Part shown: positions 18,001 to 59,731 of the stretch, piece by piece
Layout: each line of letters opens with the position of its first letter
Position numbering within the stretch: the stretch's first letter is position 1
NCBI RefSeq assembly: GCF_038006205.1
Contig: NZ_JBBOUU010000001.1
Span: forward strand, 3,102,001 to 3,166,000
Direction of reading: 5' to 3'
DNA from: Solibacillus sp. FSL R7-0668
Lineage (GTDB): Bacteria; Bacillota; Bacilli; Bacillales_A; Planococcaceae
Length of the DNA: 64,000 nt
Made by a program: the position numbers and the translations under genes
The notes under the pieces: generated by a model
Database searches by the model: none
The model's input: the letters and a program-made list of their open reading frames with translations, nothing else
Told to the model about the DNA's origin: nothing

Positions 18001-19445
18001 CTTTTTAATCGGGCTAGTTGCTTCGATTTATCTTCAATAAGAGCTTCATTTTTTGCCATGCGACTGCTCGTATCCTCTTTCTTTTGGCGAACAGCATCTA
18101 GTTGTTGTTCTATCTCCTGCTTTTGTTCCTTTAATTGCTTGGCCTCGAATTGCTTTTGTTGCTGCTGTTTTTCTAACTGCTCTTTTTTTCCTTCTAATAG
18201 AAACAGCCATTGCCCTTTTAACAGCTCTAGCTCATTTTGATAGTCATTGACATCTTCTTTTTCGTTTTCCTGTTGGAGCATTTGTTGATTATATGCAATC
18301 GTTTCCTTTGTTTGCTCGAGCTTTTGAGCATCCAATGCATATTCTAAAGAGATTTTCTCATGCCGAACAGATTGTCGTTTTTCCTCTATGCTCTGGAGTA
18401 GCTGTTGTGTATTGGCTAACGCTTGTTGAAGTTGTTGTTGTTTATCCTGCTGTTCGTAGATTTCTATTGCTTTGTCCTGCCTTAATAGCTGTTGCTGTAT
18501 GTCCTTTAAGCTATTAAGTCGGTCCTCAATACTCGCAACCTCTTGCTCTGTCTCTTCTTTTTGCTGGCGTAAATAGGACATATACGATGCTGTACGCTGT
18601 TGCTCTTCCTCATAGCTCGTTAACGCATCTTGATAAATACGATAGCGATCGACATAGCGGTCCATCTGCTCCTGCATCGCACGGTATTCAATTTTCTTTT
18701 CATTAAACTCTTTATATTTTTTTAAATTGCTACGTTGCTTTTCAAATTGATCGGTCATACTAAGTGGATTAAAGTGCTTATCTGCATTTTCAACAGAAGG
18801 AATCAACAAGCGATCAAATAACTCCTGTGTTCCTCTACACTCCTCAAATACCTTTTCAATACCACCCTCCGCGCTATTCATGACAATCATATTTTCCCAT
18901 TCCTCACGAATGATGAAATAATTGCTTTCTAAATAATCGGTAAATGCTTTAATCGACTGTAGAAAAAGCTTAGCACGCATCGGAGTTTGCTGCACAACAC
19001 TTTGATAATACAGGTGAATGTCATCTTTACTCGCCGGATATTGCATACCTGCTTCCTGCTTTGTAAACGGTATAGCATCGATGCTATGTTTATCACGCTC
19101 ACTGTACGCATACACATAACGCAGTGACTCAATTTTATTGTTTTTTGTATAAAGCGTCACAGCCGTCACGACATATTGACGTGGTCGCTCGTTTAATAGC
19201 CACTCAATGGCAATATGAGCAGGGCCCTCCTCTAAATAGAGCGTGTCTTTAATATTTCGATTAGATACAGAGGCATGTGGAATAATGGCCTGCATTGCCG
19301 CCTGTATAAACACGGTCTTGCCACCGCCATTTTCTAATAAAACCGCGCCATTTTGTGCATCAAATTGAAAGGTTTCATCATGTTAACGTTTTAAGCCTTG
19401 CTCATAAATAATATTAGCGAAGCGAATTTTACTAATTGTCGGCAT
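15045..19445 (-). pseudogene. Wadjet-like SMC motor JetC, interrupted by a stop at codon 21
   Basis: The gene would encode a 1,466-residue SMC/MukB-like ATPase starting at the ATG at 19445, overlapping the end of the JetB-like gene by 14 bases. The frame reads MPTISKIRFANIIYEQGLKR, then TAA (19385-19383), then continues unbroken through the Walker A motif LLENGGGKT, a glutamine-rich coiled coil of about 1,000 residues, the ABC signature SGGESWSKNMALYL and Walker B RVLILDNPFGKAS. Only one base needs changing (TAA to TAC or TAT) to restore it. Restarting at the GTG at 19313 would drop the P-loop. Everything else is intact, so the lesion is recent, a sequencing error, or read through. Confidence 0.85.
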
Positions 19446-27908: not shown

Positions 27909-29105
27909 TTAACAAAATGATTCAAATTCAAAGTCGAGAAAATCTGTTTTACTAATTACTCTGGCACATACACCATGTGCATTAGCTTGGAACCATAAAC
28001 TAGCTCGAGTAGAAATTAATTCATTTAGTACTTTTAAATTTAGAGAATTTTCTTCTTGTATCCTTAAAAGATAAACACAGTCACTTACTGGTATAAATCC
28101 ATCTTCTATAAATGCCACTTTTCCTATACATCTTTTCCCAACCCTAGCAACTAAGATATCTCCAGGTTCAGCTAAGCGTACCTCTTTTGGAAAATCAGAA
28201 GATTTATATGGAAATGTATAGTAAACTTTATTTTCTTCAAAGGTACTTGTATGAAAGTATGGTACTTGTAAGTTATCTAGATACTTTTTAGACTTATTTC
28301 CCCTTTTTAAAAGAATATCCATATCTTTCAGTTTCAGAAGAGATCGACCATTTGTTTTTTTTATATTCTGTTTCCAAAAATGATAATCATAATCCATTCT
28401 CTGTATTAATTCATTCTTATTCACAGATATTTCATTAATTATTACTCCATCTAAATTAGACTTTGCTAAAATAACTTTTTTGAACGTTTCTTTACCTTTT
28501 TCTATAATCAAAATATGAGTTCTTGCCTCGGTCTTTTGGAAAACTTTATCAGGTAATTGAATAACTTTTTTCAATTTATGATATTTTAATAAATCTGCTC
28601 TAAATAATTGGAAAGTATGATTGGTTAATAAACTATCTGGTAATATTATGGCTAGTTCACTACCATCTTTAAGATAAATTAAATTTTTGACTAAAAACAT
28701 AAGGTCTGTTGGAATATTTTTCAAATCTTTTACACTCTCAAAACCAGCTCTATCCAAAAGATCATAATCATGATTATTAGGTTTATATTTTAGGTACGGG
28801 GGATTACAAATAGCGAGGTCAAAGTTATCTTCAAAATGTGATAAAATTTTATTTAAATTATTATCTAAAACGTTTCCATTTTCCACTTTAACAAAATTCA
28901 AACTTTTTCTTATATGCTCTACAATTTCAAAATCAATATCAATAGCAGAGTATTCGGCTGCCCCCCATCTTTTAAATGCAGCTAAACTCAATGAGCCATT
29001 TCCTATACCTAATTCGAGAACTTTCTTAGGCTTTTCTACTTCTATTTGAGATATTAATAGATGAGATATTTTATCCTGTGTATAATATCTACCTAACTCT
29101 TCCAT
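27909..29105 (-). CDS. N6-adenine DNA methyltransferase with C-terminal target-recognition-like domain
   Basis: A 398-residue gamma-type adenine methyltransferase: S-adenosylmethionine motif VLELGIGNGSLS (about residues 30-41), catalytic motif NPPYLKYK and motif VI-like LAIILPDSLL, followed from about residue 260 by a region resembling HsdS target-recognition domains (FPKEVRLAEPGDILVARVGK). It would methylate adenine in a specific site to protect from a partner nuclease. The gene overlaps by 17 bases a truncated upstream gene, probably its restriction partner, cut by an IS4 element. It may now act as an orphan methylase. Confidence 0.85.
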   Translation of the reverse strand: MEELGRYYTQDKISHLLISQIEVEKPKKVLELGIGNGSLSLAAFKRWGAAEYSAIDIDFEIVEHIRKSLNFVKVENGNVLDNNLNKILSHFEDNFDLAICNPPYLKYKPNNHDYDLLDRAGFESVKDLKNIPTDLMFLVKNLIYLKDGSELAIILPDSLLTNHTFQLFRADLLKYHKLKKVIQLPDKVFQKTEARTHILIIEKGKETFKKVILAKSNLDGVIINEISVNKNELIQRMDYDYHFWKQNIKKTNGRSLLKLKDMDILLKRGNKSKKYLDNLQVPYFHTSTFEENKVYYTFPYKSSDFPKEVRLAEPGDILVARVGKRCIGKVAFIEDGFIPVSDCVYLLRIQEENSLNLKVLNELISTRASLWFQANAHGVCARVISKTDFLDFEFESFC

Positions 29106-29367
29106 TCATAATATGCCCCCTTCCATATCCATTTATCATAGCATCTCTAAAATTATAGTAAATATCTTTTTCCACTGCATTGGTAGAAGAATCTTTAAAA
29201 ATACCATAATACTTTAAAAAAATTTTTTTATCGCTTCTATAATCTAGTTTCCAATATTCTGAACGTTCTTTAAAAGTTCGTTCTAAAATAATTGAAAATA
29301 ATTGATTATTTATTACTTTAACTAAATTTTCACATACTTGTACAATCTCATTTAAATGATCAAAATC
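29089..29367 (-). pseudogene. C-terminal remnant of the gene preceding the methyltransferase
   Basis: An open frame of 92 codons without a start encodes EIVQVCENLVKVINNQLFSI and continues through YWKLDYRSDKKIFLKYYGIF to a stop overlapping the methyltransferase start. No family is recognised. Its coupling to the methyltransferase suggests a restriction endonuclease whose N-terminal part was removed when the IS4 element arrived at about 29370. Confidence 0.55.
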
Positions 29368-30923
29368 TCATTAACATTGCATTAAATTAAAACACTATTC
29401 ATCAAGAGTCCTTCTAACTAAAAAAATTCCAAAACAAGGTATTCCGTTGCACAAAAAAACTCCTTATAATTAGGTTTGGTAGTTCTGTCCAAATCCCAAT
29501 TAAAAGGAGCCAACCATGAACAAGGATACCACAAAATCCACATTAAATGAATTGTTAAAAGTACTAAATGAGAAAACATTTTTAAAAATTGTGAACGTCT
29601 CCAATCTTGATTATTACGTGAAAAAGCTGTCAGCCTATAAGTTTTTACAACTGTTCATCATTGCACAGCTGAATGAAAAAGATTCGCTCAAAAAATTGGC
29701 GAAACATCTGAAGGAAACTGAAGAGCTTCAAACCTTTGTTCAAATGGGTACCATTAGTTCGTCGCAGCTTTCACGCAGACAGTCCTGCTTGACGCCGGGC
29801 ATATTTGAAAAGGTCTTTCGCCATCTCGTCGTTGCCGCCCAGGTAAAATTGAAGAGAAGGCAACCGTTTGTTCGGGATATCGATCAACTACTTGTTATCG
29901 ATTCTTCTACCATGTCCATGAGTCTGAGCCAATATCCCTGGGCTACGTTTCGAAAAACCAAGGCAGGTGTTCGTCTGCATTTACGCGTCGTTGTCACAAA
30001 AGATGTGACGCTCCCAGATCAGGCGGTTCTTTTGCCGGCGAAACATGCAGACCGTACGCAAATGGATACGCTGGTGGCGTTCGATTCCGATGCCATTCAT
30101 CTGTTTGACCGAGGCTATACGGACTATAAACAGTATGACAAATTGTGTGAGAAAGAGGTTCGCTTTATCACGCGATTGAGGAAAAATGCAAAGATTGAAG
30201 TGCTGAATGAGCAAGCCCCAGACGTTGAAAATAACATCTTTTCGGATCAAGAAGTCTTTTTGGGGGATGAGCAGAACCGCACGAAAATGTCGAATTCGCT
30301 GCGTTTAATCCGAACAGTCGATCGCGAGAAAAATGAAATCATTATTCTCACAAGCTGTTTCGATTTGTCGGCGAAAGAAATTGGAGACCTCTATCGCTAC
30401 CGCTGGAAAATTGAAACGTTTTTTAAATGGATGAAACAGCACCTAAGAATCAAAAAGTTCTTCGGAAAAAGTCAGAACGCCGTCTACACACAAATCTGGA
30501 TTGCTCTGATTACGTATTGCCTGCAAGTATTGCTAAAGCTGGAACTGAACCATGATGGACCACTTTTAGAGATGAAAGAAACGCTTCAGAATCTTCTTTT
30601 CAAGCCTTTTGAAACTTTTGTTAAAGCACTTTTCAGACCGCCGACAAGGCAATCCAAAGGACGAAAAAAGCATGATTGGGACAGTGAGTTTCAGCTCATC
30701 GTCAAACAGTTTGACGAAAGAGAGGTGGAACATTTAGACAATTTAACGTACGACCCGATTTTCTAGGTTATATCATATGTAAATAATTTACAATTTGTGG
30801 ATGAGGACTACCGCTTATGCCCACGTTGACTTTTTTTCAAATACGGAGAAATCGTTCGTTCTGAATTTTCAGATATATGAGTCAGGTAGGTATTATGCCC
30901 CTTTTGACAAATGTTAAAAATTT
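29368..30923 (+). mobile_element. IS4-family insertion sequence (outer limits)
   Basis: Limits are the ends of the flanking gene remnants; I could not identify the terminal inverted repeats by eye. It contains one intact transposase gene with its own ribosome site. Confidence 0.65.
29516..30766 (+). CDS. IS4-family DDE transposase
   Basis: A 416-residue transposase of the IS4 family. The catalytic acidic residues lie in LLVIDSSTMSMS, HLFDRGYTDY and the YREK-like YRWKIETFFKWMKQH motif. AAAGGAG precedes the ATG. GC content is clearly higher than that of the surrounding genes, marking a recent arrival. It appears full length and probably active; its insertion truncated the gene next to the adenine methyltransferase. 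Confidence 0.92.
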   Translation: MNKDTTKSTLNELLKVLNEKTFLKIVNVSNLDYYVKKLSAYKFLQLFIIAQLNEKDSLKKLAKHLKETEELQTFVQMGTISSSQLSRRQSCLTPGIFEKVFRHLVVAAQVKLKRRQPFVRDIDQLLVIDSSTMSMSLSQYPWATFRKTKAGVRLHLRVVVTKDVTLPDQAVLLPAKHADRTQMDTLVAFDSDAIHLFDRGYTDYKQYDKLCEKEVRFITRLRKNAKIEVLNEQAPDVENNIFSDQEVFLGDEQNRTKMSNSLRLIRTVDREKNEIIILTSCFDLSAKEIGDLYRYRWKIETFFKWMKQHLRIKKFFGKSQNAVYTQIWIALITYCLQVLLKLELNHDGPLLEMKETLQNLLFKPFETFVKALFRPPTRQSKGRKKHDWDSEFQLIVKQFDEREVEHLDNLTYDPIF

Positions 30924-31529
30924 TTATGCAACGCTAATGTCAAAATCTATAACTATTGGCTTCTCAATATACTTTTTATATGTATTTAAACCAAAATGCA
31001 TAGCATTATCTGAACCCAACATTCCAAACCTATGTACAATACAATGCCTTAATTGACATACATCTGAAAATTCTTTAAACACTGTGTCTGTATTCTTTAA
31101 TGTTACACCTAATAAACTCTTCAAAGTCTCTCTAATATTCTTCCCATTTGTAAATGAGTATCCTTCAAGTAAGGCCTCAGGTAACATTAGCAAGTTTTGA
31201 TTCGATATAACTGCTCCATATTTTAAAGTTACACCTTCACATTTAGTTTTAGAAATCTCATCATTTATAATTATAGACCTTATTAATTTCCTAATAAAAC
31301 TTTCTACGGCAGAGACACTTCCTAAAACTATCATATTCGTTAAATCTTTAGGTATATTCTCAATACTGCTTTCATAAGGTCTAATTAACCTAAACAGAGC
31401 TTGCCTTTTTTCTATAAAATCATCAATAGCTGATTGTTTAGGTTCTTCATATGTTTCATCAAATAATCCTTCTGTACTAAAATTACTAACAGGTGTATGG
31501 CTACTTATAACATAATTGAACTTTGACAT
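30924..31529 (-). CDS. HEPN-type putative RNase, partner of the upstream ATPase
   Basis: A 201-residue, mostly helical protein. The segment CQLRHCIVHRFG contains Arg161-x4-His166, the Rx4-6H signature of HEPN domains, many of which are RNases that act in abortive infection or toxin systems. Its ATG shares an A with the stop of the preceding ATPase gene (TAATG), so the two are translationally coupled and should be made in similar amounts. The likely arrangement is a sensor ATPase controlling an RNA-cleaving effector. The residues outside the motif do not match a family that I know. Confidence 0.65.
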   Translation of the reverse strand: MSKFNYVISSHTPVSNFSTEGLFDETYEEPKQSAIDDFIEKRQALFRLIRPYESSIENIPKDLTNMIVLGSVSAVESFIRKLIRSIIINDEISKTKCEGVTLKYGAVISNQNLLMLPEALLEGYSFTNGKNIRETLKSLLGVTLKNTDTVFKEFSDVCQLRHCIVHRFGMLGSDNAMHFGLNTYKKYIEKPIVIDFDISVA

Positions 31530-33208
31530 TATGCTAAAAACTCCTCTATTAATATATTTACTGTATTAATAATTTTCCCTGCTTTCTTTACTCCAAATCC
31601 ATTAGGTTTCGTTAATTCTTCTGATATATTGGCACTTGCTAAAAAATCTTTTACTGTTCTTAAATCTGTTTCTTCCAAAATTTTATTCTTTTGCCATTCA
31701 GTTAAAGGTAACTGATCAATAGTTAATCGCATACATTCCTCAAAAGTAGATTTAGATACTAGCTCACTTCCACAGTTGTGGCAAAACTTTTGATTTTCAC
31801 TTAATCTATGAGCCCCACATTTAAAACACGAAGGTAGATCTAACTTTAATCTTTGTAAAGCTTCTGCACTTAGAATACTTTGAATACCCGTTTTTCTATG
31901 GGGGTGTTTCTTATCTGGACGTTCTAAAAAACTAATTATTTCACTTATTTTAAAACCCCTACTTGTAGAAAAAGCTTTCTTTTGTAAGAGTAAAAGAAGA
32001 TGAGGTATATATCTTTCATATTCTCGCTTTGGACCATGCTTAACTGGAGGTAGTTGATATAGCATACCTGCCTCAATTAAAAACTGAAACATACGCTGTG
32101 TTGATTTATCAGTGACGTCCCCTATTCCAAATATAACCTGTTTTGTTTCCTCATCTAACACTAATTTTTTATTTAAATCCGCTAACTCACTTACTATTGC
32201 TTCAAGAATTTCCATCCCTACCTCCAATATGCTACTATATTGAGGTAACTTTTGTTTAATAGAAATATATTCATCTTTTAACAATTTACTTCTCTCATCA
32301 ATAATTTGATTAAATTTACTTTGTGTGGAACCTTTTTTTAGTTCATAATCTCTTAATATTGTTACAAAAGCTCTAGGATTGCCAAAAGAAGCATATTTTA
32401 TCAAAGCTTTTATATTAGAATCTAAAGTTGTATTTTTAAATCGTTTTTCAAAGAATTCTTCAATAAAACTATTGTAGTCTTCTCCAAAAGGATTAAACCA
32501 CAAACTAATAGAATCGACATCTTGTTTCAGATGAAATCTAGGTCCATATTCTGTAGTTCCTGGGTATACAGATGCTTTAGGAGAAATACTAATTGTTTTC
32601 AAACTTCTAAACACATCAAAAAATTCAATCATATATTCCTTTGTTAAAGTTAATGCTGCATCATCTAAAAGTAAAATAGCTCGTTTCCTTTTAGCAGCCT
32701 TCATGGAAGTGTTTATAAAATTTGTTGTACTAAATATTGTGATATTATTTAAGATTTTTTCATGCCAAGGTTCTACTACATTTTTTTCTGATTGTGCAAC
32801 AAATTTCAACAACTCTTCTTCAGTTATCTCCTCAAAAAAAGTTACCTTTTTGTTGCTTAGTTTCTTATTACTTTCTGAACAACCTAAAATAATTTTACTC
32901 AACATCCATGTGTGAAAAATCTTAATTGCAGCTGGATTGCTCGAAATTAAGGGCTCTAAGTGATAATACTTACTAAATGATACATAGATAGAAAATGGCT
33001 TTTTAGAATCTTCTAAGCAATTTTTTTGGGCTATCTTCATTTGGTGTGTTTTACCAGTACCTCTTGGTCCTATAAGAACCTTAGCTCCTTTTTCGATTAA
33101 CTTCTTCTGAACCTCTTCTAAAATTTCACTTTGTACATTCCATTGTGAAAGTAAAGTTTCTTCTATATAATCTGCTCGTTCTTCATATTCATTTTTATCT
33201 TTTACCAT
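31529..33208 (-). CDS. AAA/ORC-CDC6-like ATPase with zinc ribbon and C-terminal helical domain
   Basis: A protein of about 559 residues. Walker A is GPRGTGKTH (near residue 47) and Walker B ILLLDDAA (near 178), in a layout like ORC/CDC6- or STAND-type ATPases. Residues about 461-480 form a zinc ribbon (CFKCG ... CHNCG), and the last 70 residues look like a helix-hairpin-helix-type fold (NGFGVKKAGKIINTV). ATG at 33208 or 33211 follows AAAGGGGTG. It is followed with a one-base overlap by the HEPN gene and preceded by an 80-residue-class gene, forming a three-gene unit. It is not a family with a known defence name to me. Confidence 0.75.
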   Translation of the reverse strand: MVKDKNEYEERADYIEETLLSQWNVQSEILEEVQKKLIEKGAKVLIGPRGTGKTHQMKIAQKNCLEDSKKPFSIYVSFSKYYHLEPLISSNPAAIKIFHTWMLSKIILGCSESNKKLSNKKVTFFEEITEEELLKFVAQSEKNVVEPWHEKILNNITIFSTTNFINTSMKAAKRKRAILLLDDAALTLTKEYMIEFFDVFRSLKTISISPKASVYPGTTEYGPRFHLKQDVDSISLWFNPFGEDYNSFIEEFFEKRFKNTTLDSNIKALIKYASFGNPRAFVTILRDYELKKGSTQSKFNQIIDERSKLLKDEYISIKQKLPQYSSILEVGMEILEAIVSELADLNKKLVLDEETKQVIFGIGDVTDKSTQRMFQFLIEAGMLYQLPPVKHGPKREYERYIPHLLLLLQKKAFSTSRGFKISEIISFLERPDKKHPHRKTGIQSILSAEALQRLKLDLPSCFKCGAHRLSENQKFCHNCGSELVSKSTFEECMRLTIDQLPLTEWQKNKILEETDLRTVKDFLASANISEELTKPNGFGVKKAGKIINTVNILIEEFLA

Positions 33209-33257
33209 CATACACACCCCTTTATATAGCTTTCAGCAAGTAATTTAGTATATTCGC

Positions 33258-33485
33258 TTAAACCGTATACTCCAACGACTTCTTCAACTCATCCAAATCA
33301 ATTCTCATTAATTCTTTTATATGTTCATCTGAAACAAGTGTAAGGTCGTATGCTTCCATTTCTAAGAGCAGCGTATATGCCACACCATGAAAATGGGTAG
33401 GTTGCCACTTTAACATATCAGGATATTTTTCTTGTACAACAGCTTCCGCTAATTTGATAACTCGATTATATTCTTCTTGTTCCAT
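33258..33485 (-). CDS. small hypothetical protein heading the ATPase-HEPN unit
   Basis: A 75-residue acidic protein (MEQEEYNRVIKLAEAVVQEK...). GGAGGT six bases before the ATG at 33485 fixes the start. It contains no recognised domain; the KWQPTHFHGVAYTLLLEMEA segment is moderately hydrophobic. It ends 50 bases before the ATPase start and lies just downstream of the GGGACAA repeat array, so it could be part of, or a regulator of, that unit. Confidence 0.6.
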   Translation of the reverse strand: MEQEEYNRVIKLAEAVVQEKYPDMLKWQPTHFHGVAYTLLLEMEAYDLTLVSDEHIKELMRIDLDELKKSLEYTV

Positions 33486-34249: not shown

Positions 34250-35995
34250 TCATTTTAATTGATCTAACTCTAAAAATTCAAGCAAATGTGGTGTGAACAG
34301 TCCTTTATCATCAAAATCATCCTTATTAACCTCATTCCAAATGCCAATACTATTCTTATCATTACTTGTGTAACCAATTACAGCCTCTAATTTAGGCATA
34401 TTAAAATGAATATTATTTTTCCCACCAGCAGCCTGAATTAAATTATAGTTATTAGTAATCATAGATCTTTTAGTCTTAAGGTCGTATGGCTTACCTGTTG
34501 TTAAACTGTTTATTGTAATTAGCTCCAGTTCTTCTTTATAAAAGATACTTTCTTGAAGTTCCTTGACACTCGAAAAATTGATTTTTTCTAATAACCCCTC
34601 TGGTAAATCAAAATCATTTATCAAGAAATAATCAACCCCTAAATGCTTACACAACTCTGCTAAAATTATCGCTGTTGCTTTACCATGATGTGGTATGATA
34701 GCGATGTTTTTATAATTCAAATATGTTTCGGCATATTTTTCATCACCAGTTAGATTAAGGACTCTTTTTTTAATCAGTTGCCTATATACCATCAAATCAT
34801 TCGGCCCTTCAACTAAAAGTACCTTTTTACTGAAAATTATCTTATTTAAATTTGGTTCGATACTTTTTATGTAATTGTTATAATCGGCAATTTCCTCTAA
34901 TGTAAAAACTTCTTTAATATCTTCATCAAAATCACCGTTATAATCATTAAAAGCTACCACTGATTGTTTTAAATCCTCGTCAAACTCTAAACGTACCAAA
35001 CCTCTTGTATCAAAAATATCAATCATTTTATGGGAATGAGTAGTGTAAATGACTTGATGTCCTTTTTCTGTTAGTTCACATAAAACTTTTTTATAAAAAT
35101 ATTCTTGATGGTTTTCGTGTAAAAAGCTCTCTGGTTCTTCAAATATAAATACACATCTATCATCGGTATTTGTTTCGGCAATTGTTTGAATGATCGACAT
35201 AACAAACATTGAGATATAACCGTCCCCAAAATGTTCTATCGGAATTAAATTTTCTCTATCCCCATTAATTCCTACTTTAAATATCATTTCTAGGAAAAGG
35301 TCATCGTACTCTGGTAATCCGAATTCTATTAAACATGAATTATCCCTTAAATTCTTTTCATAATTCGTCTTTATATTATCTATGAAATCGTTTAAAAATG
35401 ATTCACTAATCATTTCATCAGATAAGGATCTCATTTTTCCGTTAAATAATGTTCTTTTATTTATAATGTCTGGATCGGAAGTTATTGAACTTTTAATAAA
35501 CTTTGCTAAAAAAGACGTTAAATTTCCCCAGCTACTTTTCTTTATAGAAAGTTCCTTTTTTATTTCATGAAAATTAACATAAAATATTTTATAATATTTT
35601 GCTGCACCCGATATTTTTTTATTATCACTATTCATTTTTGCGTTTAATATTTCCGTTTCGTCAACTTCTAATTCTAAAAATAATTCCCCATCCAATTTAA
35701 CTTCATTGCCACTTGAAGTTTTTTCAGCACTACCCTCAAGCGTCGAATTTATAGAAATTTTTTTCAACAAATCACGGTTATGAAAATCATCAATACAAAA
35801 TGTTTCTTTTCCAACATATTTAGCAGTTAGGCCAATTAAAATGGCATTTAATAAATTTGTTTTACCTGCATTATTATAACCAACTATTGCTACAGGTCTT
35901 TTGTAGTTCTCATTCGGAAAAGTAATTGTTTGTGCTTTGTTTCCAAATGATCGATAATTTGCTATATAAATCTCATTAATTCTAATTTTACTCAT
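34250..35995 (-). CDS. OLD-family ATP-dependent nuclease
   Basis: A 581-residue protein with an ABC-type ATPase domain (Walker A GYNNAGKTN near residue 40, Walker B CVFIFEEPESFLHE, H-loop TTHSHKMID) followed by a Toprim nuclease domain (VLLVEGPNDLMVY, then NDFDLPEG). This is the architecture of OLD (overcoming lysogenization defect) nucleases, active in phage defence alone or with partners such as GajB. The ATG at 35995 follows AGAGGAAGTGG; a longer start would add 11 residues. No GajB-type helicase follows, so it is a single-gene (class 1) OLD. Confidence 0.87.
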   Translation of the reverse strand: MSKIRINEIYIANYRSFGNKAQTITFPNENYKRPVAIVGYNNAGKTNLLNAILIGLTAKYVGKETFCIDDFHNRDLLKKISINSTLEGSAEKTSSGNEVKLDGELFLELEVDETEILNAKMNSDNKKISGAAKYYKIFYVNFHEIKKELSIKKSSWGNLTSFLAKFIKSSITSDPDIINKRTLFNGKMRSLSDEMISESFLNDFIDNIKTNYEKNLRDNSCLIEFGLPEYDDLFLEMIFKVGINGDRENLIPIEHFGDGYISMFVMSIIQTIAETNTDDRCVFIFEEPESFLHENHQEYFYKKVLCELTEKGHQVIYTTHSHKMIDIFDTRGLVRLEFDEDLKQSVVAFNDYNGDFDEDIKEVFTLEEIADYNNYIKSIEPNLNKIIFSKKVLLVEGPNDLMVYRQLIKKRVLNLTGDEKYAETYLNYKNIAIIPHHGKATAIILAELCKHLGVDYFLINDFDLPEGLLEKINFSSVKELQESIFYKEELELITINSLTTGKPYDLKTKRSMITNNYNLIQAAGGKNNIHFNMPKLEAVIGYTSNDKNSIGIWNEVNKDDFDDKGLFTPHLLEFLELDQLK

Positions 35996-36042
35996 GCAAG
36001 CCACTTCCTCTTCGTGAATTACACACATAATTAATACACAAA

Positions 36043-36106: not shown

Positions 36107-38809
36107 TCACTTGTACTGACGGTAATATTTATTCTTCAACCCATCAACCGTCATATTTTCATTTAAGTTCGTATGAGGAATAAGCAAGTATCCCCACTCT
36201 TTTCCGTCATGCTCTAATTCATGCTTAGATGCGTGTTCACACCATGCTGTAACAGCTTTTGCCTTCTCTAGAACAATCTCGTCCTGCATATCCGATTCAG
36301 CTTTAATTTCACAAATAAATTTCACTTCATCTGTTTCTACTACGAAGTCTGGGTGATACGTTTCACCACGCCCGTAGTAAATTTTCAATTGCCCTGACAT
36401 TGGTTTAAACCATTTCAGCACCTTAGGATCGTTTTCACAGATTACAGCAAATTTACGTTCACTATCTGAGTCGAATTTTTGAACTCGGTACAGGCTCTTT
36501 GAAAAGCCGCTGAATACCATACTTCTAATTTTACTTTTATCTTCAACAGGGTTTCTGAAGTTACGTTCACCATCTTCAACAACCATTGTGTAATGCACAT
36601 TACCTAGTTGTTCATATCCCTTACTAATCTTCACATCATACTCGTTTTCTGAAGTTTGATAGTAATATTCCTGCATTTGTTCGTGAATATGGCTTGCTAA
36701 TTGTTTTGAATTATAAGCAAGAACATTTTCAACAGCCTCATCATCTGCCAAATACGATTGGAGATGTTTGATTAATTGACCAACTAAATTGTAAAGTAAT
36801 TCTGCATGATCATCGTAGGAGATGTCCGAATAATTCATTAGTTGCTCAATAATATAGTCTGCTAAGTTCTCTTGTTTATAAATCATTCCACTCGTATTTA
36901 ACGTGGAACGTTCACTCGTTCTTAAGTTTTGAATGACTATTTTACCTTCAGTGGACTGAAGATGTATATTTTTTACGTCTAATTCGAATTCTTTATATCC
37001 CCATGTTACATCGCCTACTGGTTGAATAATAACCCTTGGAATGTCAATACTATGCTGAACATGGTTATTAACAGAGGTTGCAACTACGTGTGCTACAAAT
37101 TTTTCTGTTTCTTCTGGGAATAAATCTAATTCTTGTGTATTGAGATCTTCCTTCACTTCTTTTACAATTGCTGCCTGTACTTCAGGCTTTTGAAGGTCTT
37201 TAGAACTCGGAAGGTATTCAAATTTTTTCATTGCCTTCTGAGTCGCTTGAACGATGTCGTTAACGCGATTAGTCGTGAACGTTTCTTTCGCTTCAGGTTT
37301 ATTCTCGATTATTTTATCAACTTCAGCTTGTACTTCCTGTTGAATCGTTTCTTCTATTTTTGTCGTAATTGTAACTGCTTCTTTTTTCTCTACGGCAACA
37401 TCTTTACCAATAATAACACCTTTTCGAATAACCGAATTCGGATTGTTTGCCTCATCAATTATATCTTGGAATCGATCATGTGCTACAATTGTCAACCTAT
37501 CTACCGCTTCATTTCCTGTTCTTTTTCCATAAGGTAAACGTAATCCACGTCCAATTGATTGTTCTACAAGCGTCTTCGAGTTAGCTGCACGTAATGGAAT
37601 AATTGTATATAAATTTGTTACATCCCAGCCCTCTTTTAGCATATTTACATGAATAACAATTTCAGTTGTAGAGTTTGGATCTTCAAGTGCCATTAATTCT
37701 GCAATTGTTTCATCCTTCTCCTCTCCACGCTGATTAGAGTGTACTGTTATAACCTTCCCTTCATATTGACCATCATAAAATTCGTCTGATTCAATATATT
37801 TTAGTAGCTCTTCTGCATGATTTGTGTCTTGAGCAACTACAAGAATAAAAGGTTTTACTAATGGCTGGCCCGTTTTACGACTATATAAATCAAGCTCAGT
37901 TTTTGTTTCTTCGTGGATACGAACACCATCTGCTAATTTTAATCTTTCTAGCATATGTTCTTGCCCTTTAAAATCATCTGCATTGAAGTTTTCTCTTGTA
38001 GCAACTGTTGGCTCTTTTACATAACCATCTTCCATCGCTTTATGTAATGGATAGCTATAGATTACATTTTCAAAAGGAATTGTCTTTGTGCCTGATTCGA
38101 CTTGTGGTGTAGCAGTTAACTCCAATCCGATTACTGGCTTTAATTCATTTAAAACATTTACACCAGCTGTCGCTCTATAACGATGCGATTCATCCATTAA
38201 TAGAACTAAATCAGGTAATGAAGATAAATATTCAAAATAACTTTCGCCAATATATTCACTTAATCGTTTAATACGAGGAGCTTTCCCACCACGCACTTCT
38301 GAATTAATTTTAGAAATGTTGAAAATATTTATGTGAATCTCGTCTTCTTTAAATAAGCTACTTTTCACATACATTTTTCCTGAATCGTAGTTATCACCTG
38401 TAATGATACGTGGCTCATTCGCTGCGATTTCTGCGACACCTTTAAATACATACTTAGGTGTACCAGGCGTAAAGTCTTGAATCAGCTTGTTGTAAATAGT
38501 TAAGTTTGGCGCAAGTACAAAGAAGTTCTTCATTCCTTTTTGTATGTACAAATATGAAATAAACGCACCCATTAAGCGGGTTTTCCCCACCCCTGTGGCT
38601 AATGCAAAACACAGGGACGGGAAGTCACGCTCAAAGTCTGAAACTGTTGGATAACTTGCTTGAATTTTTTCAAGTTCAAGCTTTAATGACGCCTCATCAT
38701 GCTTTTTCAAATCAAGCATTTCGATAATATCGGCTAATATTTCTAATGAATCTTTCTGCGGCGTTCTTAAACTCAGCCGTGCAGAAATATTTTTTACTTG
38801 TTTATTCAT
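36107..38809 (-). CDS. type III restriction enzyme, Res subunit
   Basis: A 900-residue Res subunit: an SF2 helicase with FALATGVGKTRLMGAFISY (Walker A, near residue 75), the DESH box in LVLLMDESHRYR and IGRGLRLPYG (motif VI), ending with a PD-(D/E)xK nuclease (YHPDFVVET and FICEIKAES). Together with Mod it translocates along or slides on DNA and cuts about 25 bases from an unmethylated site. The ATG at 38809 follows GAGGAGG and overlaps the Mod stop by 8 bases. All motifs are present, so the system is probably active. Confidence 0.95.
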   Translation of the reverse strand: MNKQVKNISARLSLRTPQKDSLEILADIIEMLDLKKHDEASLKLELEKIQASYPTVSDFERDFPSLCFALATGVGKTRLMGAFISYLYIQKGMKNFFVLAPNLTIYNKLIQDFTPGTPKYVFKGVAEIAANEPRIITGDNYDSGKMYVKSSLFKEDEIHINIFNISKINSEVRGGKAPRIKRLSEYIGESYFEYLSSLPDLVLLMDESHRYRATAGVNVLNELKPVIGLELTATPQVESGTKTIPFENVIYSYPLHKAMEDGYVKEPTVATRENFNADDFKGQEHMLERLKLADGVRIHEETKTELDLYSRKTGQPLVKPFILVVAQDTNHAEELLKYIESDEFYDGQYEGKVITVHSNQRGEEKDETIAELMALEDPNSTTEIVIHVNMLKEGWDVTNLYTIIPLRAANSKTLVEQSIGRGLRLPYGKRTGNEAVDRLTIVAHDRFQDIIDEANNPNSVIRKGVIIGKDVAVEKKEAVTITTKIEETIQQEVQAEVDKIIENKPEAKETFTTNRVNDIVQATQKAMKKFEYLPSSKDLQKPEVQAAIVKEVKEDLNTQELDLFPEETEKFVAHVVATSVNNHVQHSIDIPRVIIQPVGDVTWGYKEFELDVKNIHLQSTEGKIVIQNLRTSERSTLNTSGMIYKQENLADYIIEQLMNYSDISYDDHAELLYNLVGQLIKHLQSYLADDEAVENVLAYNSKQLASHIHEQMQEYYYQTSENEYDVKISKGYEQLGNVHYTMVVEDGERNFRNPVEDKSKIRSMVFSGFSKSLYRVQKFDSDSERKFAVICENDPKVLKWFKPMSGQLKIYYGRGETYHPDFVVETDEVKFICEIKAESDMQDEIVLEKAKAVTAWCEHASKHELEHDGKEWGYLLIPHTNLNENMTVDGLKNKYYRQYK

Positions 38810-40424
38810 TGGAATCCTCCTCAACAAATAACGACAGTTGCTCTTTATTTTCGGTATTCATAAAACCATCAACCTTTAAACTATAATCATCTCTACCGTA
38901 TTCACAGTTTTTCAGAATCGTTGTCGGAATTTTAACAAACGTTATATTTGGATAATCATTAGGATTAGCAGTATAAGCCTTACAGCAAATTAATAACGTT
39001 TCATCTTCCTTCATTTGCTCTTGAATATTATCAGCTACCTCACGGGTAATAAATTGCGTTGTTGTGTAAATATAGTCATTTTCAGTAGAATAGCCTTGCT
39101 TCCAATAAATTTGCTCATCAGGCGCATACGTAAAGCCTTTATGCTTACACATCGCTTCTGCCAACATTGCTGGATTATAATTTTCACTAATAATCCAATT
39201 ACCAAACTTATCTTTTTCTAATAGGCTTGGTGCTAAGCGATAATATTTAAAGCCTCCACCACCTTGCCAATTTACTGACTTACTAATACCACCTTGATCT
39301 GTACCATCCACAACTTGTTGTATGCGTGGGATAATATGAGTATGACAATGTTCCCCTAATTCTATCATTATCCACTTACGTCCCATCTTATGAGCAACAG
39401 CCCCTGTTGTACCTGAACCTGCAAATGAATCAAGTATAATGTCATTTTTATTAGTAGCCAAGGTAATGATCTTTTGCAAAAGTCTTTCAGGTTTTGGAGT
39501 AGTAAAGACATCTTTGGGATTCAGTGCCTTTACTTCTTTTTTAGCTTCTTGGTTATCTCCCACTTCTGAACGAAGCCAAATTGTTTTCGAAACAACCCCA
39601 CCCTGCACCTCTGTTAAAAACCTTTTCACTGAAGGAACGTTACCACCAGTTTTACCAAACCAAATTCTATTATCTTCTAATAGTTCCTGAAATTTTTCTT
39701 CAGAAACAACCCAACTTCTACTTTCAGGTGGTACAACAATTCTTCCAGATGGTGTCGTTATAGGATAAATATCTTTAGGATTTGCAGTTTTAACTGATAA
39801 ATCACTTGGTTTCCAAGATCCTCTTGGGTCGTTGTCTGGGTTTTTGTATCGCTTATCCATTTCTTCAGTTCTTGGCAATAAATTTGGTCTCCATATATTC
39901 TTATCTTTTGCATAGACAAGAATATGATCATGGCTATCAGATAACCATTTAGCATCATTTTGCGGTGAGTATTTCTTTTCCCAAATAACATTGCTAACAA
40001 AGTTCTTACGTCCAAACACCTCATCACATAATACCTTTAAATAATGTGATTCATCATCATCTATAGATATCCATATAGAACCGTCTTCAGTTAATAAATT
40101 ATGAATAATTTCTAACCTCGGCTTCATTAAACTCAACCAAATTGAATGTTCAATACCATCGTCATAATGAGGAAAAGCATTCCCAGTATTATAAGGAGGA
40201 TCAATATAAATACATTTAATCTTCCCAGCAAATTCATCTTCTAATGCTTTTAATGCCAATAAGTTATCCCCAAAAATCAATCGATTATCGAAAATATCAT
40301 TATCTGTCACTTTTGCTTCAGCACGATAAGATAGTTCAGGGTCTGCAATTAAAATACGTGGCTCTAACTTCGGGGGATTATCCTTACCAATCCAAGTTAG
40401 CTCCAATTTCGTTTTATTACTCAT
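38802..40424 (-). CDS. type III restriction-modification, Mod methyltransferase
   Basis: A 540-residue beta-class adenine methyltransferase. Motif IV is YIDPPYNTGN (near residue 90) and motif I LDSFAGSGTTGAVA (near 330); the central and C-terminal parts form the target-recognition region. It sets the specificity of the Res/Mod complex and protects the host. The ATG at 40424 follows GAGGTGAACGG. It lies upstream of res with an 8-base overlap, and downstream of a decayed SNF2 helicase gene. I saw no simple-sequence repeat in it that would mark phase variation. Confidence 0.95.
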   Translation of the reverse strand: MSNKTKLELTWIGKDNPPKLEPRILIADPELSYRAEAKVTDNDIFDNRLIFGDNLLALKALEDEFAGKIKCIYIDPPYNTGNAFPHYDDGIEHSIWLSLMKPRLEIIHNLLTEDGSIWISIDDDESHYLKVLCDEVFGRKNFVSNVIWEKKYSPQNDAKWLSDSHDHILVYAKDKNIWRPNLLPRTEEMDKRYKNPDNDPRGSWKPSDLSVKTANPKDIYPITTPSGRIVVPPESRSWVVSEEKFQELLEDNRIWFGKTGGNVPSVKRFLTEVQGGVVSKTIWLRSEVGDNQEAKKEVKALNPKDVFTTPKPERLLQKIITLATNKNDIILDSFAGSGTTGAVAHKMGRKWIMIELGEHCHTHIIPRIQQVVDGTDQGGISKSVNWQGGGGFKYYRLAPSLLEKDKFGNWIISENYNPAMLAEAMCKHKGFTYAPDEQIYWKQGYSTENDYIYTTTQFITREVADNIQEQMKEDETLLICCKAYTANPNDYPNITFVKIPTTILKNCEYGRDDYSLKVDGFMNTENKEQLSLFVEEDSNE

Positions 40425-40443
40425 TCCGTTCACCTCGTAGTAG

Positions 40444-41422
40444 TTAGATAACACTCCATTTTATTATAAACAACTTCTGCTCGCTAATCTTCTGTTCTAA
40501 TCGACTTTCCATATCAATAAACAATCGCTGTTTTTGTCGGTCGATTTCATCTTGTTCATCATATAGATTTCGACGCATTTTGTTACGTTTACGCTCTTTT
40601 TCTTGAATGAGATTATTCATTTCGAGTTCTTCACGAACCATTCTCGATTCAAGTTCCTGTAGCAATAGTATTCGCTTTGTATAAGGTACATATTCTATTA
40701 CTTATCTTCGCAGTGTTCTATGACACACAGGAGCAATACGCTCTTTTAAATCTTCTAAGTTAGATTTTGAAATTTCTCTTGAACCGCTACCAAATTGTTT
40801 TCTAAAAATTATTTCATCGCCAAATAAATAAGGGTCTATAAAACTCATCAAGCGATACAGTTCCATCAATGAATTTTGAAGCGGTGTTGCAGTTAATAGT
40901 AGCTTCGGAAAGCCAGCCGTTGCTTCTCTTATAACTCGACATACTTTATTTGATTTTTTGTATACATTTCGTAATCGATGTGCCTCATCAATCACGATTA
41001 AATCCCAAGGAATCCGTTGAATTTCCTGTGCCTTGTTTCGGGCATATGTATGTGAAATAATCACTACTTGATCTTTTTGGAAAAAGGGATTTAACGAGCC
41101 TTCTTTAACGAATTGATTGTAGTTTTTGCTTTCGTAATGGAGGTGACACAATAATAAGAATTTGTCGTTTATGCTCCGCCCATAACTGGCTTAAAGCTAA
41201 CCCTGCCTCAATTGTTTTTCCTAAGCCTACCTCATCTGCTAATAAAGCTCCCCTTTCTAATGGTGCTCTAAATGCAAATAAAGCTGCTTCAACTTGATAG
41301 GGATTTAGATCCACTGTTGCCCTAATTAAAGATTGGCTTAAACGCACTACTAAATCAGATGCATTTTGCTTCGTTAACTCATGTGCATAATATTGGCTTT
41401 GGTAAGCTGTAGTAATTGTCAA
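40444..41422 (-). pseudogene. SNF2-family DEAD/DEAH helicase, frameshifted and internally deleted
   Basis: Three pieces in different frames: an N-terminal part (41422-41105) with LADEVGLGKTIEAGLALSQL; a second part (41151-40702) with WDLIVIDEAHRLRNVYKK (DEAH) and LLLTATPLQNSLMELYRL; and a C-terminal part (40665-40444) that is charged and helical. A frameshift near 41120 and loss of the whole RecA2 domain after CHRTLRR show that it is dead. SNF2 helicases of this type often accompany type III-like systems. Confidence 0.85.
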
Positions 41423-42991: not shown

Positions 42992-43708
42992 TTAATTTCT
43001 TACTGTCGATGCACGGTAACGATGACTTTCACCTGTAAAAATCACGAGATGTGAATGATGAATAAGTCGATCAATTACTGCCTCTGTCAAAATCTGATTG
43101 CCAAATACATGATTCCACTGGCCAAACTGTAAATTGGTCGTGATGATAATACTCTTTTGCTCGTAACACATGGAAATTACTTGAAAAAGAAGCTCTGCTC
43201 CTTCTTTACCGAGTGGGAGATAGCCCATCTCATCTAAAATTAGTAAATCTAACTTCTCAATCTGATTCATCAGCTTCGTCAATTGTCCCTTCTGATTGGC
43301 ATCAATCAATTGATTGACTAAGCCAGCTACCGTATAAAAGCGTACTTTATAGCCAAAACTAGTTATGGCATTTAAGGCAATCAAACGGCTCAAATAGGTT
43401 TTTCCTACTCCGACCCCACCATATAAAATCAGATTCTCCCTTTCGGCAATGAACTGACCGCTTAGTATTTCTTCTGATGTAATTGTCTTTGGCAATTGCA
43501 CATGCTGCCAAACGTAAGGCTCATTGCCACACTTCGGTAGATTCGCCTGTTTTAATAAGAGGTTAATTCTTGATGTTTCACGTTGCTCGATTTCCTCTTC
43601 AAAAATATGTTCTAAAAACGTCACCTGTTCAGGGGTGAAATTCATGTGATTCGCACGTAAATGACTTAATTTTAGTCGTTTGGCGTATTCCTGTAATCGT
43701 TCACTCAT
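42992..43708 (-). CDS. istB: IS21-family helper ATPase IstB
   Basis: A 238-residue AAA+ ATPase of the IstB/DnaC-like family: Walker A GGVGVGKTYLSR (near residue 97) and Walker B LLILDEMGYLPL. It selects target DNA and stimulates the IstA transposase. The ATG overlaps the istA stop by four bases. Length and motifs are normal. Confidence 0.95.
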   Translation of the reverse strand: MSERLQEYAKRLKLSHLRANHMNFTPEQVTFLEHIFEEEIEQRETSRINLLLKQANLPKCGNEPYVWQHVQLPKTITSEEILSGQFIAERENLILYGGVGVGKTYLSRLIALNAITSFGYKVRFYTVAGLVNQLIDANQKGQLTKLMNQIEKLDLLILDEMGYLPLGKEGAELLFQVISMCYEQKSIIITTNLQFGQWNHVFGNQILTEAVIDRLIHHSHLVIFTGESHRYRASTVRN

Positions 43709-46184: not shown

Positions 46185-49100
46185 CTATTTCATTTTATTA
46201 TTTATTATTATTTCCTCTTCTGTAATTGTAATGTTTAGGGACACAATTTTCCTTTCAGCTAAAAAATTCATTAGTTCTAAATTATTTTCCTCATTAGAGA
46301 AATGGATACGATTTCCTTTCCTTAATCCGATGGAATTATATGGAGGTTTAAGTTTAGAAAATAATTCAAAAATCTGAGTCCTAGATAAGTTTGCTTTCTC
46401 AATATAGAATTTAGCCATTTTTGAAATATCTTCTTGTTCTACAAAACTGCTCACTATTTTCTCACTATTATGAAACTCTAAAATTCTTTCATATCTTTGT
46501 TTTTTAAGTAACCAATTTCTAAAATCTATACTCGATTCAAATTTATTATAGTTAAATAAATTAATAATTAGATTATCATCAAAATTTTCCTTCGTAAATA
46601 AATCGAAATCTTCCTGCGAGAAAATACGATCATAAAGTTGGGATTCTTGATTTAATGCATATCGTGTTGCATACTCTTTCGAGAAATTAAACAATTCATC
46701 ATATATTTCTTTATCCCAATATTTAGCTTCTTCTATTTGAATTTTTATATCATCACTTGATAAACCACTCTTTAATAAGGCAATAAAATAAGCTGTATTT
46801 GCTTTTTCCGAGTTCCATTTAAAATTTAATAATGTTGAAAGAGGTATATTCCCATTTATTTCTCTTAAAATATATTCTTCTGATACTTCAGAACTAACTC
46901 GATCAAAATAATTAACCATGTCATCATCCATAAATTCAAATTCCTTAATCAATAAATTAACTAACTTTTCTGTCCATGGTAATATCCCTTCTGAATTCAA
47001 ATCTACAAGGTCTCCTTGCAATTCCTGTATTTCACCTTTATTGTACAATTCAATTGCATTATATAAATATAATAATGAGATTTGTTTTTCTGATAAAGAA
47101 TAAATAAACTTATAAACTTCTATAGACCAATAAACAGCATCAATACTTATTAATGCTTCTAACTTATCAATAATAACAGTTGAGGTATTAATAATCACTG
47201 TAGGTTCAATCATAATGTAGGAAGAATTTCCCGCTAAATTTTGAAGGATAGTCCTATCAATATTTTCACTAATAATCAATTCATTCATTAACTTTTGATA
47301 ATTATCACCTTCTAGTTTGTTAATATTTTCCTTATCATTTAATAATTCTGTAATATTTAAAGGATTATTAAGGATTTTATTTAAGTTTATAAAGCTATCG
47401 TTATAATCTTCATGGTTTAATATAAAATCTAAATTATTTACGTTAGATTTAAATTTGTTTTTACTTATAATTTCCTTTACTGAATTCAACCTTGAAATAT
47501 CATTTAATTTTCCGGAGTATTTTTCAACCAATATAAATTTAGCTCCATCTGATAACTCTTCATTATTTAAAAAATTGATAAGTACTGTCTCGTCCTCTAT
47601 ATAACTATCTAAATTATTGATAACATTGTAAATAAAACTTTCTATATTCTCTTCAATATAATTACCAAAAAGCTCATTGTCGATTGCATTTTTTATATTT
47701 ATATCTTGAAGTAAATGTTGCATGTTTATTTTATTTATTTCAAATAAACTATTTTTAATTAAATATGATAAGTTTCCTAAATCTAATGTAGATATATTTT
47801 TAAATTTCACATTTAAATTACCAGAAAATTTTTGAATGTTTTCTTCTGAACAATTCTCATATAAACTTGGTAAATGCTGCTCTTCAGTATATTCCTTTAA
47901 ACTTTCCCACCCCCCCAATTCAAATTCATTAGGTTTAACATAATTCCAACTACTGATTATAAAATACAGGTATTTTTGCTTTTGAACACTATCTAATTCA
48001 TCTATTGTATGAATCCAAAAATGTATATCAATTTTCATTGATAAATGAAATAAATCACCTATTATTTTATATTCTTGATTTTTATATGAGTTTTCTATAA
48101 AACCATAATAATTTTTAATCCCCTCATCATTATTATTGAACATATGGGATATTATTTTTTTCAGCTTGTACCAATATTTTTCTGAATTCTTTATCATATA
48201 ATTAAATAGGTTGTAATTGAATATTGCATTAGATGATACTTCTTCTAATTTAATTCTATCTATTATTTTCGGAATATTAGTTAAAGTAAAATCTACTTCT
48301 AAAATTGTCCCGTTTCTAACTGCTTTTAAAAACTTCATATCATTATTTGTTAAACTTCCAGCATAAAAATAAGATAAGTAATCTTCGTATGATTCGTCTA
48401 TCCATCCATGACGTATTAGAAAATAAATTAATTCACTACCACTCTTTAAGTTTTCTAACAACTCACATTCTATTTCTCCGCTTTTTATTAATTTAGATAA
48501 TGATTCTCTTTTAATTCTTTGTATTTTTTTATGCAATTCCTCTTTATCATTTTTTAAATTTTCAGTTTCTGATTTATAATATATCCACTCATATCTCTCC
48601 AAATAGTTACCATCAGATACACTAGAAAAAAAAGCTTTTCCTTGCTGTATTATAGGTTGATAATTTGATCGATAAAGATGAACGGTAAAATCATTTTCTA
48701 ATCCTATACAACTTTCAAATAGACCTGTAAATCGAATATCAGAATTATAACTATTATTTGCCTCTATAGATTGAATAAATTCTCCTGATGAATTATGAAT
48801 ACTTATTTTATTTATATACCTTAATTCTTCTTTTTTCTTAAAATTGAATAATAGTGCTATATCCATTGGATTATACATATCTGATTGAATACCCATATTT
48901 ATTTTATGTTGGATTTCTTGAATATCATTTTCAATTTGATTTATTATTTTATCCCTTATATTTAATATTTCGAACAACTTACCCTCATTATTCAATAGTT
49001 TAGAATAATCGCCAGGATGAATATTCTTATATACTATAAAAGCAAATAATCTATTAAAAGTAATACTATTATTATTTAATGCTTCCTTATAAATTTTATA

Positions 49101-55262: not shown

Positions 55263-55271
55263 ACCTCTTTA

Positions 55272-57839: not shown

Positions 57840-57865
57840 CTCAATTCCTATTATAGCTGAAAATG

Positions 57866-57895
57866 AAAAAAGCCCCGATGTAATAAGGGACTTTT
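57866..57895 (-). terminator. hairpin with T-run after the PIN gene
   Basis: On the minus strand AAAAGTCCC and GGGGCTTTTTT pair around a 10-base loop and end in T residues. It lies inside the BREX operon, so it could attenuate transcription or mark the end of the inserted ATPase-PIN cassette. Confidence 0.6.
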
Positions 57896-57901
57896 GCCAT
57901 T

Positions 57902-58408
57902 TTATTTTCTTCTTCTTGGAATCAGTGTTGGCTTGGGTGGAGTATAGGACCTTAAAAGCTGATCTCCTGTTAAAATCTCCACTGTTTTACCCATTGCTGC
58001 ATAATAATTGGCTACATTTTTTATCGTTGAATCCCCAATTGCTAAACCTTGTGCCGCTAAAGTAGGCCATTCATCTGCTAAAGTTTTTAAGCCTTCCACA
58101 TCCCATAAAGTCGATTGATCGGTAAACGCTGCCCAAGGTGTTTTGTTTTCAGCTGTTAACCGTAATATTTCAGCAAATGCTTGAGCCGTTTCAAAACGAT
58201 TACGATTTGCTTGTGCAATATGGTTGCCTGTTTCAATAATTGTTGCTAGCGGTAAAACAAAGGTTGCCTTTTGCTGCATTTCATCCTGTATCTCTTTTTC
58301 TACTCGCTCATTATTCCACTGGTTTCCTACAGGTCCACATGTCTCTTTCCCAGGTACTTTGAGCCAGCAGCACAAAATGGACGTATCCATGACAACAACT
58401 TTACTCAT
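57902..58408 (-). CDS. PIN-domain putative nuclease, partner of the AAA ATPase
   Basis: A 168-residue protein with the acidic residues of a PIN-like RNase: Asp8 (VVVMDTSIL), Glu59 (IIETGNHIA), Asp126 (LAIGDSTIKN) and Asp149 (ILTGDQLL). PIN domains usually cut RNA. Its start overlaps the stop of the ATPase gene by 8 bases, so the two are translationally coupled. The pair sits between pglX and pglZ, where most type 1 BREX operons have nothing. It is likely a switchable RNase effector added to BREX; the pair could also be an addiction module. Confidence 0.75.
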   Translation of the reverse strand: MSKVVVMDTSILCCWLKVPGKETCGPVGNQWNNERVEKEIQDEMQQKATFVLPLATIIETGNHIAQANRNRFETAQAFAEILRLTAENKTPWAAFTDQSTLWDVEGLKTLADEWPTLAAQGLAIGDSTIKNVANYYAAMGKTVEILTGDQLLRSYTPPKPTLIPRRRK

Positions 58409-59654: not shown

Positions 59655-59731
59655 GTCACTTCACTCCTTCGTACCAGCAGTAAAAAATTACAGAAGGATA
59701 TACCAAACCAGTATACCCTTTTGTTGCAATT

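What the first reader, a model, noticed from the sequence alone, without database searches (positions are those of the whole stretch)
30924..33485. Translationally coupled zinc-ribbon AAA ATPase and HEPN protein: candidate uncharacterised defence module
A 559-residue ATPase (GPRGTGKTH; ILLLDD; CFKCG...CHNCG zinc ribbon; C-terminal helix-hairpin-helix-like end) overlaps a 201-residue HEPN protein (RHCIVH, Rx4H) through a TAATG junction, preceded by a 75-residue protein. ATPase-plus-HEPN pairs are a common abortive-infection design (established for several families), but this combination with a zinc ribbon and a small leading gene is not one that I can name. It lies among OLD, type III R-M and BREX genes.
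Basis: partly seen in the sequence, partly recalled or inferred. Interest (0 to 1): 0.75.

Follow-up and report, generated by a model that had tools for sequence, protein, structure and literature searches.

The report
Methylase, NLR-like ATPase and HEPN RNase
This is one copy of a conserved three-gene bacterial module (a DNA methylase, a DNA-binding switch ATPase and a predicted RNA-cutting HEPN protein) that looks like a restriction-modification system whose weapon is cell shutdown rather than DNA cutting; in this genome a jumping gene has split the HEPN gene.

Summary
(1) The 201-aa HEPN is a stump: a 1,571-bp IS4-family element (29369-30939), flanked by a perfect 9-bp repeat and present in five identical copies in this genome, split the gene; the C-terminal part lies beyond it. 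(2) Behind the IS is a third member, an N6-adenine methylase (27909-29105). (3) The small leading gene does not belong. In relatives a HEPN gene follows the ATPase in 54 of 54 loci and the methylase is beside it in 35 of 54. The tree has a clade with methylase (35 of 37 rows) and one without (0 of 16). E. coli HS carries an intact set beside BREX. HEPN RHxxxH is invariant in 46 of 46 and the model looks like HEPN; the ATPase models as an Orc/Cdc6-STAND switch with zinc ribbon and HhH end. Best reading: methylation marks self, the ATPase senses unmarked DNA and triggers the HEPN RNase (inferred, untested). No family library or paper that I searched names this trio. New variant of a known kind; interest 0.62.

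The parts
31529..33217 (-). ATPase, 562 aa: Orc/Cdc6-STAND-type P-loop ATPase (Walker A GPRGTGKT, Walker B ILLLDD), zinc ribbon CFKCG...CHNCG (residues 464-482), HhH-like C-terminus
30924..31529 (-). HEPN gene, N-terminal piece: 196 native codons with RHCIVH, then IS sequence to the stop
29369..30939 (+). IS4-family insertion sequence, 1,571 bp (transposase 29516-30766), inside the HEPN gene
29360..29368 (.). 9-bp target-site repeat, left copy
30940..30948 (.). 9-bp target-site repeat, right copy
29143..29370 (-). HEPN gene, C-terminal piece, beyond the IS
27909..29105 (-). N6-adenine DNA methylase, 398 aa, NPPY; third member of the module

Best explanation
A three-gene module that works like a restriction-modification system with a suicide RNase in place of a DNA-cutting enzyme. 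The N6-adenine methylase marks the host genome at a sequence motif. The ATPase, an Orc/Cdc6-STAND switch with a zinc ribbon and an HhH-like end, binds DNA and, on meeting DNA without the mark (incoming phage or plasmid), exchanges nucleotide and assembles. The assembled ATPase activates the translationally coupled HEPN protein, which cuts RNA and stops the cell. Shown here: homologies, folds by prediction, invariant motifs, linkage of the three genes, and the IS split of the HEPN gene, so that this copy is presumably dead as an effector while the ATPase and methylase frames are open. Inferred: DNA binding, reading of methylation, assembly, RNase activity, abortive outcome.
For: HEPN follows the ATPase in 54 of 54 loci, the methylase is adjacent in 35 of 54. 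Methylase presence is one feature of one clade: 35 of 37 rows against 0 of 16; 2 label changes against a shuffled mean of 17.0, 0 of 500 shuffles as low. Identities of the three proteins correlate over 30 dereplicated loci (0.50, 0.23, 0.38; 0 of 299 permutations as high). HEPN R, H, H invariant in 46 of 46 and methylase NPP in 30 of 30. HEPN model pLDDT 93.9, best structural matches Roquin N-terminus and HepT. ATPase fold close to archaeal STAND-like ATPases, CED-4, NLRs, TnsC, Cdc6/Orc1. No other family recurs beside the module in more than 4 of 49 loci, so no DNase or helicase belongs to it. Methylase C-terminal half varies more than the catalytic half (median 30% against 38%). Defence and mobile contexts: window, E. 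coli HS beside an integrase and BREX, BREX locus of L034. In E. coli HCP8S3_I1 the ATPase is split by IS1 while the HEPN ORF stays intact, as expected if the ATPase activates rather than restrains the HEPN.
Confidence: 0.5

Rival explanations
1. The ATPase-HEPN pair is an infection sensor of its own (NLR/Avs-like) that recognises a phage protein or nucleic-acid structure; the clade I methylase is an added part that prevents self-triggering or only modifies DNA.
For: Clade II (16 rows) has the pair without the methylase and its genomes hold only weak hits to the methylase profile elsewhere. The ATPase fold is close to CED-4 and plant NLRs.
Against: In clade I the methylase is kept in 35 of 37 rows in three gene arrangements. 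In L034 and L044 the clade II pair lies between BREX pglX and pglZ, where another methylase could serve.
Confidence: 0.27
2. A toxin-antitoxin pair: the ATPase restrains the HEPN toxin, as proposed for ParA/Soj-HEPN and MNT-HEPN pairs (PMC3710099, passages); the methylase is a neighbour.
For: Tight coupling of two genes; HEPN gene interrupted by mobile elements in the window, L034 and E. coli MSB1_1D.
Against: E. coli HCP8S3_I1 has its ATPase split by IS1 and the HEPN ORF open. Gene order is ATPase then HEPN in 54 of 54. Zinc ribbon and HhH point to DNA.
Confidence: 0.13
3. The HEPN protein is not an RNase here; it is a structural partner and the complex blocks foreign DNA directly, BREX-like.
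For: Orc/Cdc6-type ATPases work in BREX (BrxC, BrxD; PMC12839542, passages). HEPN structure scores are low.
Against: R, H and H of the motif are invariant in 46 of 46 proteins that share 22-48% identity with the first row, as expected of a catalytic Rx4H.
Confidence: 0.1

Closest known systems
PrrC with EcoprrI (type I R-M plus anticodon nuclease) and RloC
   Same: HEPN RNase tied to an ATPase and to DNA modification; suicide logic (PMC3710099, passages)
   Different: There an ABC ATPase is fused to the HEPN and a full hsdMSR system cuts DNA; here the ATPase is Orc/STAND-like and separate, the methylase is a single gene, and no DNase or helicase recurs beside it
DUF499-centred BREX-related (BR, Hma) systems
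   Same: N6 methylase, STAND/Orc-Cdc6 ATPase and often a HEPN domain (PMC12839542, passages)
   Different: There the HEPN is fused to the ATPase N-terminus and a helicase(-nuclease) is a core part; neither is seen here
MNT-HEPN (HepT/MntA) toxin-antitoxin
   Different: Partner is a nucleotidyltransferase there; here an Orc/STAND ATPase, with methylase in clade I
Ssp phosphorothioate systems (SspC)
   Same: SspC is described as a Cdc6/Orc-clade ATPase beside DNA modification (PMC10853773, passages); a distant homologue, L009, lies next to SspD
   Different: Modification is phosphorothioate there, N6-methyladenine here; no SspD-like gene was seen by name in the window proteins scanned

Membership tests
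HEPN superfamily, RNase type | Rx4-6H motif | tested here: met
   R-x4-H (RHxxxH) in 46 of 46
HEPN superfamily, RNase type | Helical HEPN fold holding the motif | tested here: inconclusive
HEPN superfamily, RNase type | RNA cleavage | not testable with these tools
   no assay
Pfam PF18735 RiboL-PSP-HEPN | Score at or above the gathering cut-off | tested here: not met
   22.6 bits against 28.4; 3 of 46 members match at E 0.01
Orc/Cdc6-STAND ATPase | Walker A and B, GxP region, Orc/STAND fold | tested here: met
N6-adenine DNA methylase, gamma type | NPP[YF] motif and match to known N6A methylases | tested here: met
   NPP in 30 of 30; PF02384 E 1.1e-17; profile matches HsdM, BseCI, TaqI structures
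PrrC/RloC | ABC ATPase fused to the HEPN | tested here: not met
   separate genes; Orc/STAND fold
DUF499 BR/Hma systems | Helicase as core component | tested here: not met
   no protein family recurs in more than 4 of 49 loci beyond the three genes
MADS | Proteins at the level of the MADS models | tested here: not met
   methylase 24.7 bits against 720 for MAD2; ATPase only E 0.0017 to mad8
MNT-HEPN toxin-antitoxin | Nucleotidyltransferase partner | tested here: not met
   partner is the ATPase in 54 of 54
Anti-phage defence system in general | Protection against phage or plasmid | not testable with these tools
   context only

The most novel reading that the evidence does not exclude
A minimal restriction-modification-like system without a DNase: an NLR-like Orc/STAND ATPase reads the absence of N6-methyladenine on DNA and converts it into RNA cleavage by a separate HEPN protein, so that unmarked DNA arrests or kills the host cell instead of being cut. 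Its methylase-free sister clade would be an NLR-like two-gene sensor that in BREX loci may borrow the BREX mark.
Probability: 0.38. Interest if true: 0.82.

Novelty: new variant of a known kind. Interest (0 to 1): 0.62.

Why it matters
It would be a self/non-self immune system in which a DNA methyl mark controls an RNA-cutting suicide effector through an NLR-like switch, in three genes. A 2022 paper says that HEPN-R-M complexes are predicted to be widespread but had been characterised only in E. coli PrrC (PMC9296519, passage). An intact copy lies in E. coli HS beside the studied BREX cluster, so it can be tested in laboratory strains, and it gives a role to a methylase family that PADLOC files only as generic type II (PDLC03285).

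Tried and rejected
Small leading gene as a member: rejected. HEPN as an intact 201-aa protein: rejected. A phage gene set: no match to the ATPase or the HEPN among 50,697 phage records, although 16 IMG/VR contigs carry the ATPase; integrative elements or prophages are likelier carriers. Solved structures by sequence: no useful relative for the ATPase (weak P-loop, ORC4 and McrB hits), none for the HEPN. DS-41 as a relative: weak, N-terminal P-loop part only. Salmonella Gifsy-1 three-gene region: ParA-like, not related (PMC9879122, passages). Distant Orc ATPases L079-L086 have a different upstream partner, three of eight with an Rx6H motif; set aside as a third group, its HEPN nature unproven (weak DUF5677 match for one). 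E. coli counts of broken genes: too confounded by clonality and possible sequencing errors to lean on.

Rows dropped before the 54 of 54 count: L001 (same as the window), L002, L003, L009 (distant), L008 and L040 (fragmented; pieces of ATPase and HEPN are still adjacent), L043 and L045 (contig ends). The 54 include near-identical copies, and L032 (contig end) counts as without methylase. further left out near-copies L034, L035, L048, L050, L052, L053, L056 and distant or partial loci. The profiles used were built from alignments that held these proteins.

Absence in print rests on ten searches of open-licence PMC papers. Of eight papers I saw passages only; subscription papers, most preprints and all supplements were not seen, so a table in a published screen could hold this trio.

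Full report
What is there. On the minus strand the window holds an ATPase gene (31529-33217, 562 aa from GTG) that overlaps a HEPN ORF (30924-31529, 201 aa) by one base as TAATG. Next to it lies an IS4-family transposase on the plus strand (29516-30766; 244.6 bits against a cut-off of 115) and beyond that an N6-adenine methylase on the minus strand (27909-29105, 398 aa).

The HEPN gene is split. The IS runs from 29369 to 30939 (1,571 bp), with a perfect 9-bp direct repeat at both sides and imperfect inverted ends (16 of the first 25 bases agree). The genome has five identical copies of exactly these 1,571 bp, this one included, and six more at 83%, so the ends are right and the insertion looks recent. 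A profile of intact relatives, built without the window copy, finds the missing C-terminal part on the far side (E 5e-20); a genome search gives only the two pieces, at 30939-31529 and 29143-29370 in window coordinates. Intact aligned relatives are 257-372 aa as longest ORFs (median 286, 34 of 45 between 270 and 300), and the window copy is the only row that lacks three near-invariant residues (N213, R223, W230 in L010 numbering). In the model of an intact relative helix 195-226 and what follows would be lost, while the matches to HepT run to residues 214-216, so the stump probably lacks part of the HEPN core. The pieces were not joined; intact copies exist elsewhere.

Relatives. tblastn of the ATPase in plasmids gave long matches in Cupriavidus necator, Rhizobium phaseoli, R. 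leguminosarum and Limimaricola variabilis (31-38% identity); three have an N6 methylase directly upstream and all four a downstream protein that aligns with the HEPN. In 54 of 54 loci with an ATPase ORF of at least 300 aa a HEPN relative is next downstream on the same strand; 53 gaps lie between -211 and +61 nt (longest-ORF starts make some negative), and in the 54th, L034, a 411-aa ORF that looks like an IS110-type transposase (my reading, not scanned) sits inside the HEPN gene, whereas L044 with an identical ATPase has an intact one. The methylase is beside the ATPase in 35 of 54: 28 upstream, 4 downstream (window, L010, L013, L014) and 3 divergent; 19 have none. L077, from another family of the window's class, has an intact ATPase, HEPN (282 aa) and methylase in the window's order. 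Beyond these three genes no protein family recurs in more than 4 of 49 loci (336 flanking proteins); the one that reaches four includes the recombinase annotated beside the E. coli HS set.

Tree. On a tree of 56 ATPases clade I (37 rows) has the methylase in all but L011 and L012, clade II (16 rows) never; the label needs 2 changes, shuffles need 17.0 on average and 0 of 500 are as low. Clade II has SH-aLRT 93, clade I 99; near-copies inflate the counts. The 11 genomes behind 12 methylase-free loci hold at best weak hits to the methylase profile (6 of 11 at E 1e-20, best 6e-26, in ORFs of 505-565 aa). Over 30 dereplicated loci that hold all three genes pairwise identities correlate (ATPase-HEPN 0.50, ATPase-methylase 0.23, HEPN-methylase 0.38; 0 of 299 permutations as high), and the methylase C-terminal part is less conserved than the catalytic part (medians 30% and 38%), as expected if target sites differ.

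E. coli. An intact set lies in E. coli HS at 335287-339242, after an integrase gene and, past an IS1 and a broken ORF, before BREX-1; in MSB1_1D the same integrase lies by a tRNA-Thr gene. Of 5,426 E. coli genomes 145 match the methylase, 147 the ATPase and 147 the HEPN, all at 99% or more; 148 match the whole query. NCBI names them HsdM-family methyltransferase, ORC-CDC6 family ATPase or zinc-ribbon protein, and hypothetical protein. Of the 60 of 147 HEPN rows shown five have a changed length or are partial or IS-split, of the 60 of 145 methylase rows shown I see none; small indels may be sequencing errors. In HCP8S3_I1 the ATPase is split by IS1 while the HEPN ORF is annotated as whole; in MSB1_1D both are split. 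[quoted passage not shown]

Frequency. At E 1e-10 the ATPase profile hit 5 of 398 Bacillota genomes, the window's among them and two of the five distant, and 8 of 398 Pseudomonadota genomes, the centre genome among them and six of the eight distant. The module is thus uncommon but spread over at least Pseudomonadota, Bacteroidota, Myxococcota and Bacillota.

Deeper kin. L009, a distant homologue without a HEPN neighbour, lies near an SspD gene (E 6.6e-115), and SspC is described as a Cdc6/Orc-clade ATPase (PMC10853773, passages). Eight other distant ATPases have a coupled upstream partner of 235-301 aa, three with an Rx6H motif. This branch of ATPases seems to be used repeatedly beside DNA modification and HEPN-like partners; that is a lead, not a result.

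Mechanism and odds. Methylation as self mark, DNA-reading switch ATPase, HEPN RNase as effector: 0.5. Direct sensor: 0.27. Toxin-antitoxin: 0.13. Non-catalytic HEPN: 0.1. Homology, linkage, predicted folds and the IS damage are shown; every functional step is inferred.

Novelty. No Pfam, NCBIfam, PADLOC or PHROGs model that I searched names the pair; the ATPase passes only the broad PF24389, and the methylase belongs to PADLOC's generic MTase_II model PDLC03285 (E 8.2e-237 for E. coli HS, 1.3e-76 for the window). Ten literature searches found no description of the trio. The closest ideas in print are PrrC with EcoprrI and the DUF499 BREX-related systems (passages), both with a DNA-cutting arm. 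I call this a new variant of a known kind.

Noticed in passing
window 15045-63274: A dense defence island: JetC of Wadjet (15045-19313, E 0), OLD-like (34250-36028), type III R-M (36107-40454), a DrmD-like ORF (42992-43708, E 4.8e-36), Tmn (46185-50171, E 8.2e-72) and BREX BrxL, PglZ and PglX (53211-63274).
   Followed up: partly
L079-L086: Distant Orc-type ATPases with a coupled upstream partner of 235-301 aa; three of eight partners have an Rx6H motif. Possibly a separate ATPase plus HEPN-like pair.
   Followed up: partly
L009 2835-6014: A distant ATPase homologue lies near an SspD gene (E 6.6e-115) on a Planktothrix plasmid, linking this ATPase branch with phosphorothioate systems.
   Followed up: partly
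L034 and L044: In Lachnospiraceae the clade II pair sits between BREX pglX and pglZ (PglX E 0, PglZ E 5.3e-297 in L034); the HEPN gene of L034 is split by a transposase-like ORF, that of L044 is not.
   Followed up: partly
L013 2167-5861, L014 2023-5830, L016 8788-12701: A three-gene set next to the module in 3 of 49 loci: PRTase-like (E 6.8e-21), a 620-668-aa protein with no PADLOC match, and a CARF-type protein (E 6.9e-74; the E-values are for L014).
   Followed up: partly
E. coli HS NC_009800 335287-339242 (L089): An intact methylase-ATPase-HEPN set beside the BREX cluster that has been cloned and studied from this strain; no paper in my searches mentions the three genes.
   Followed up: yes
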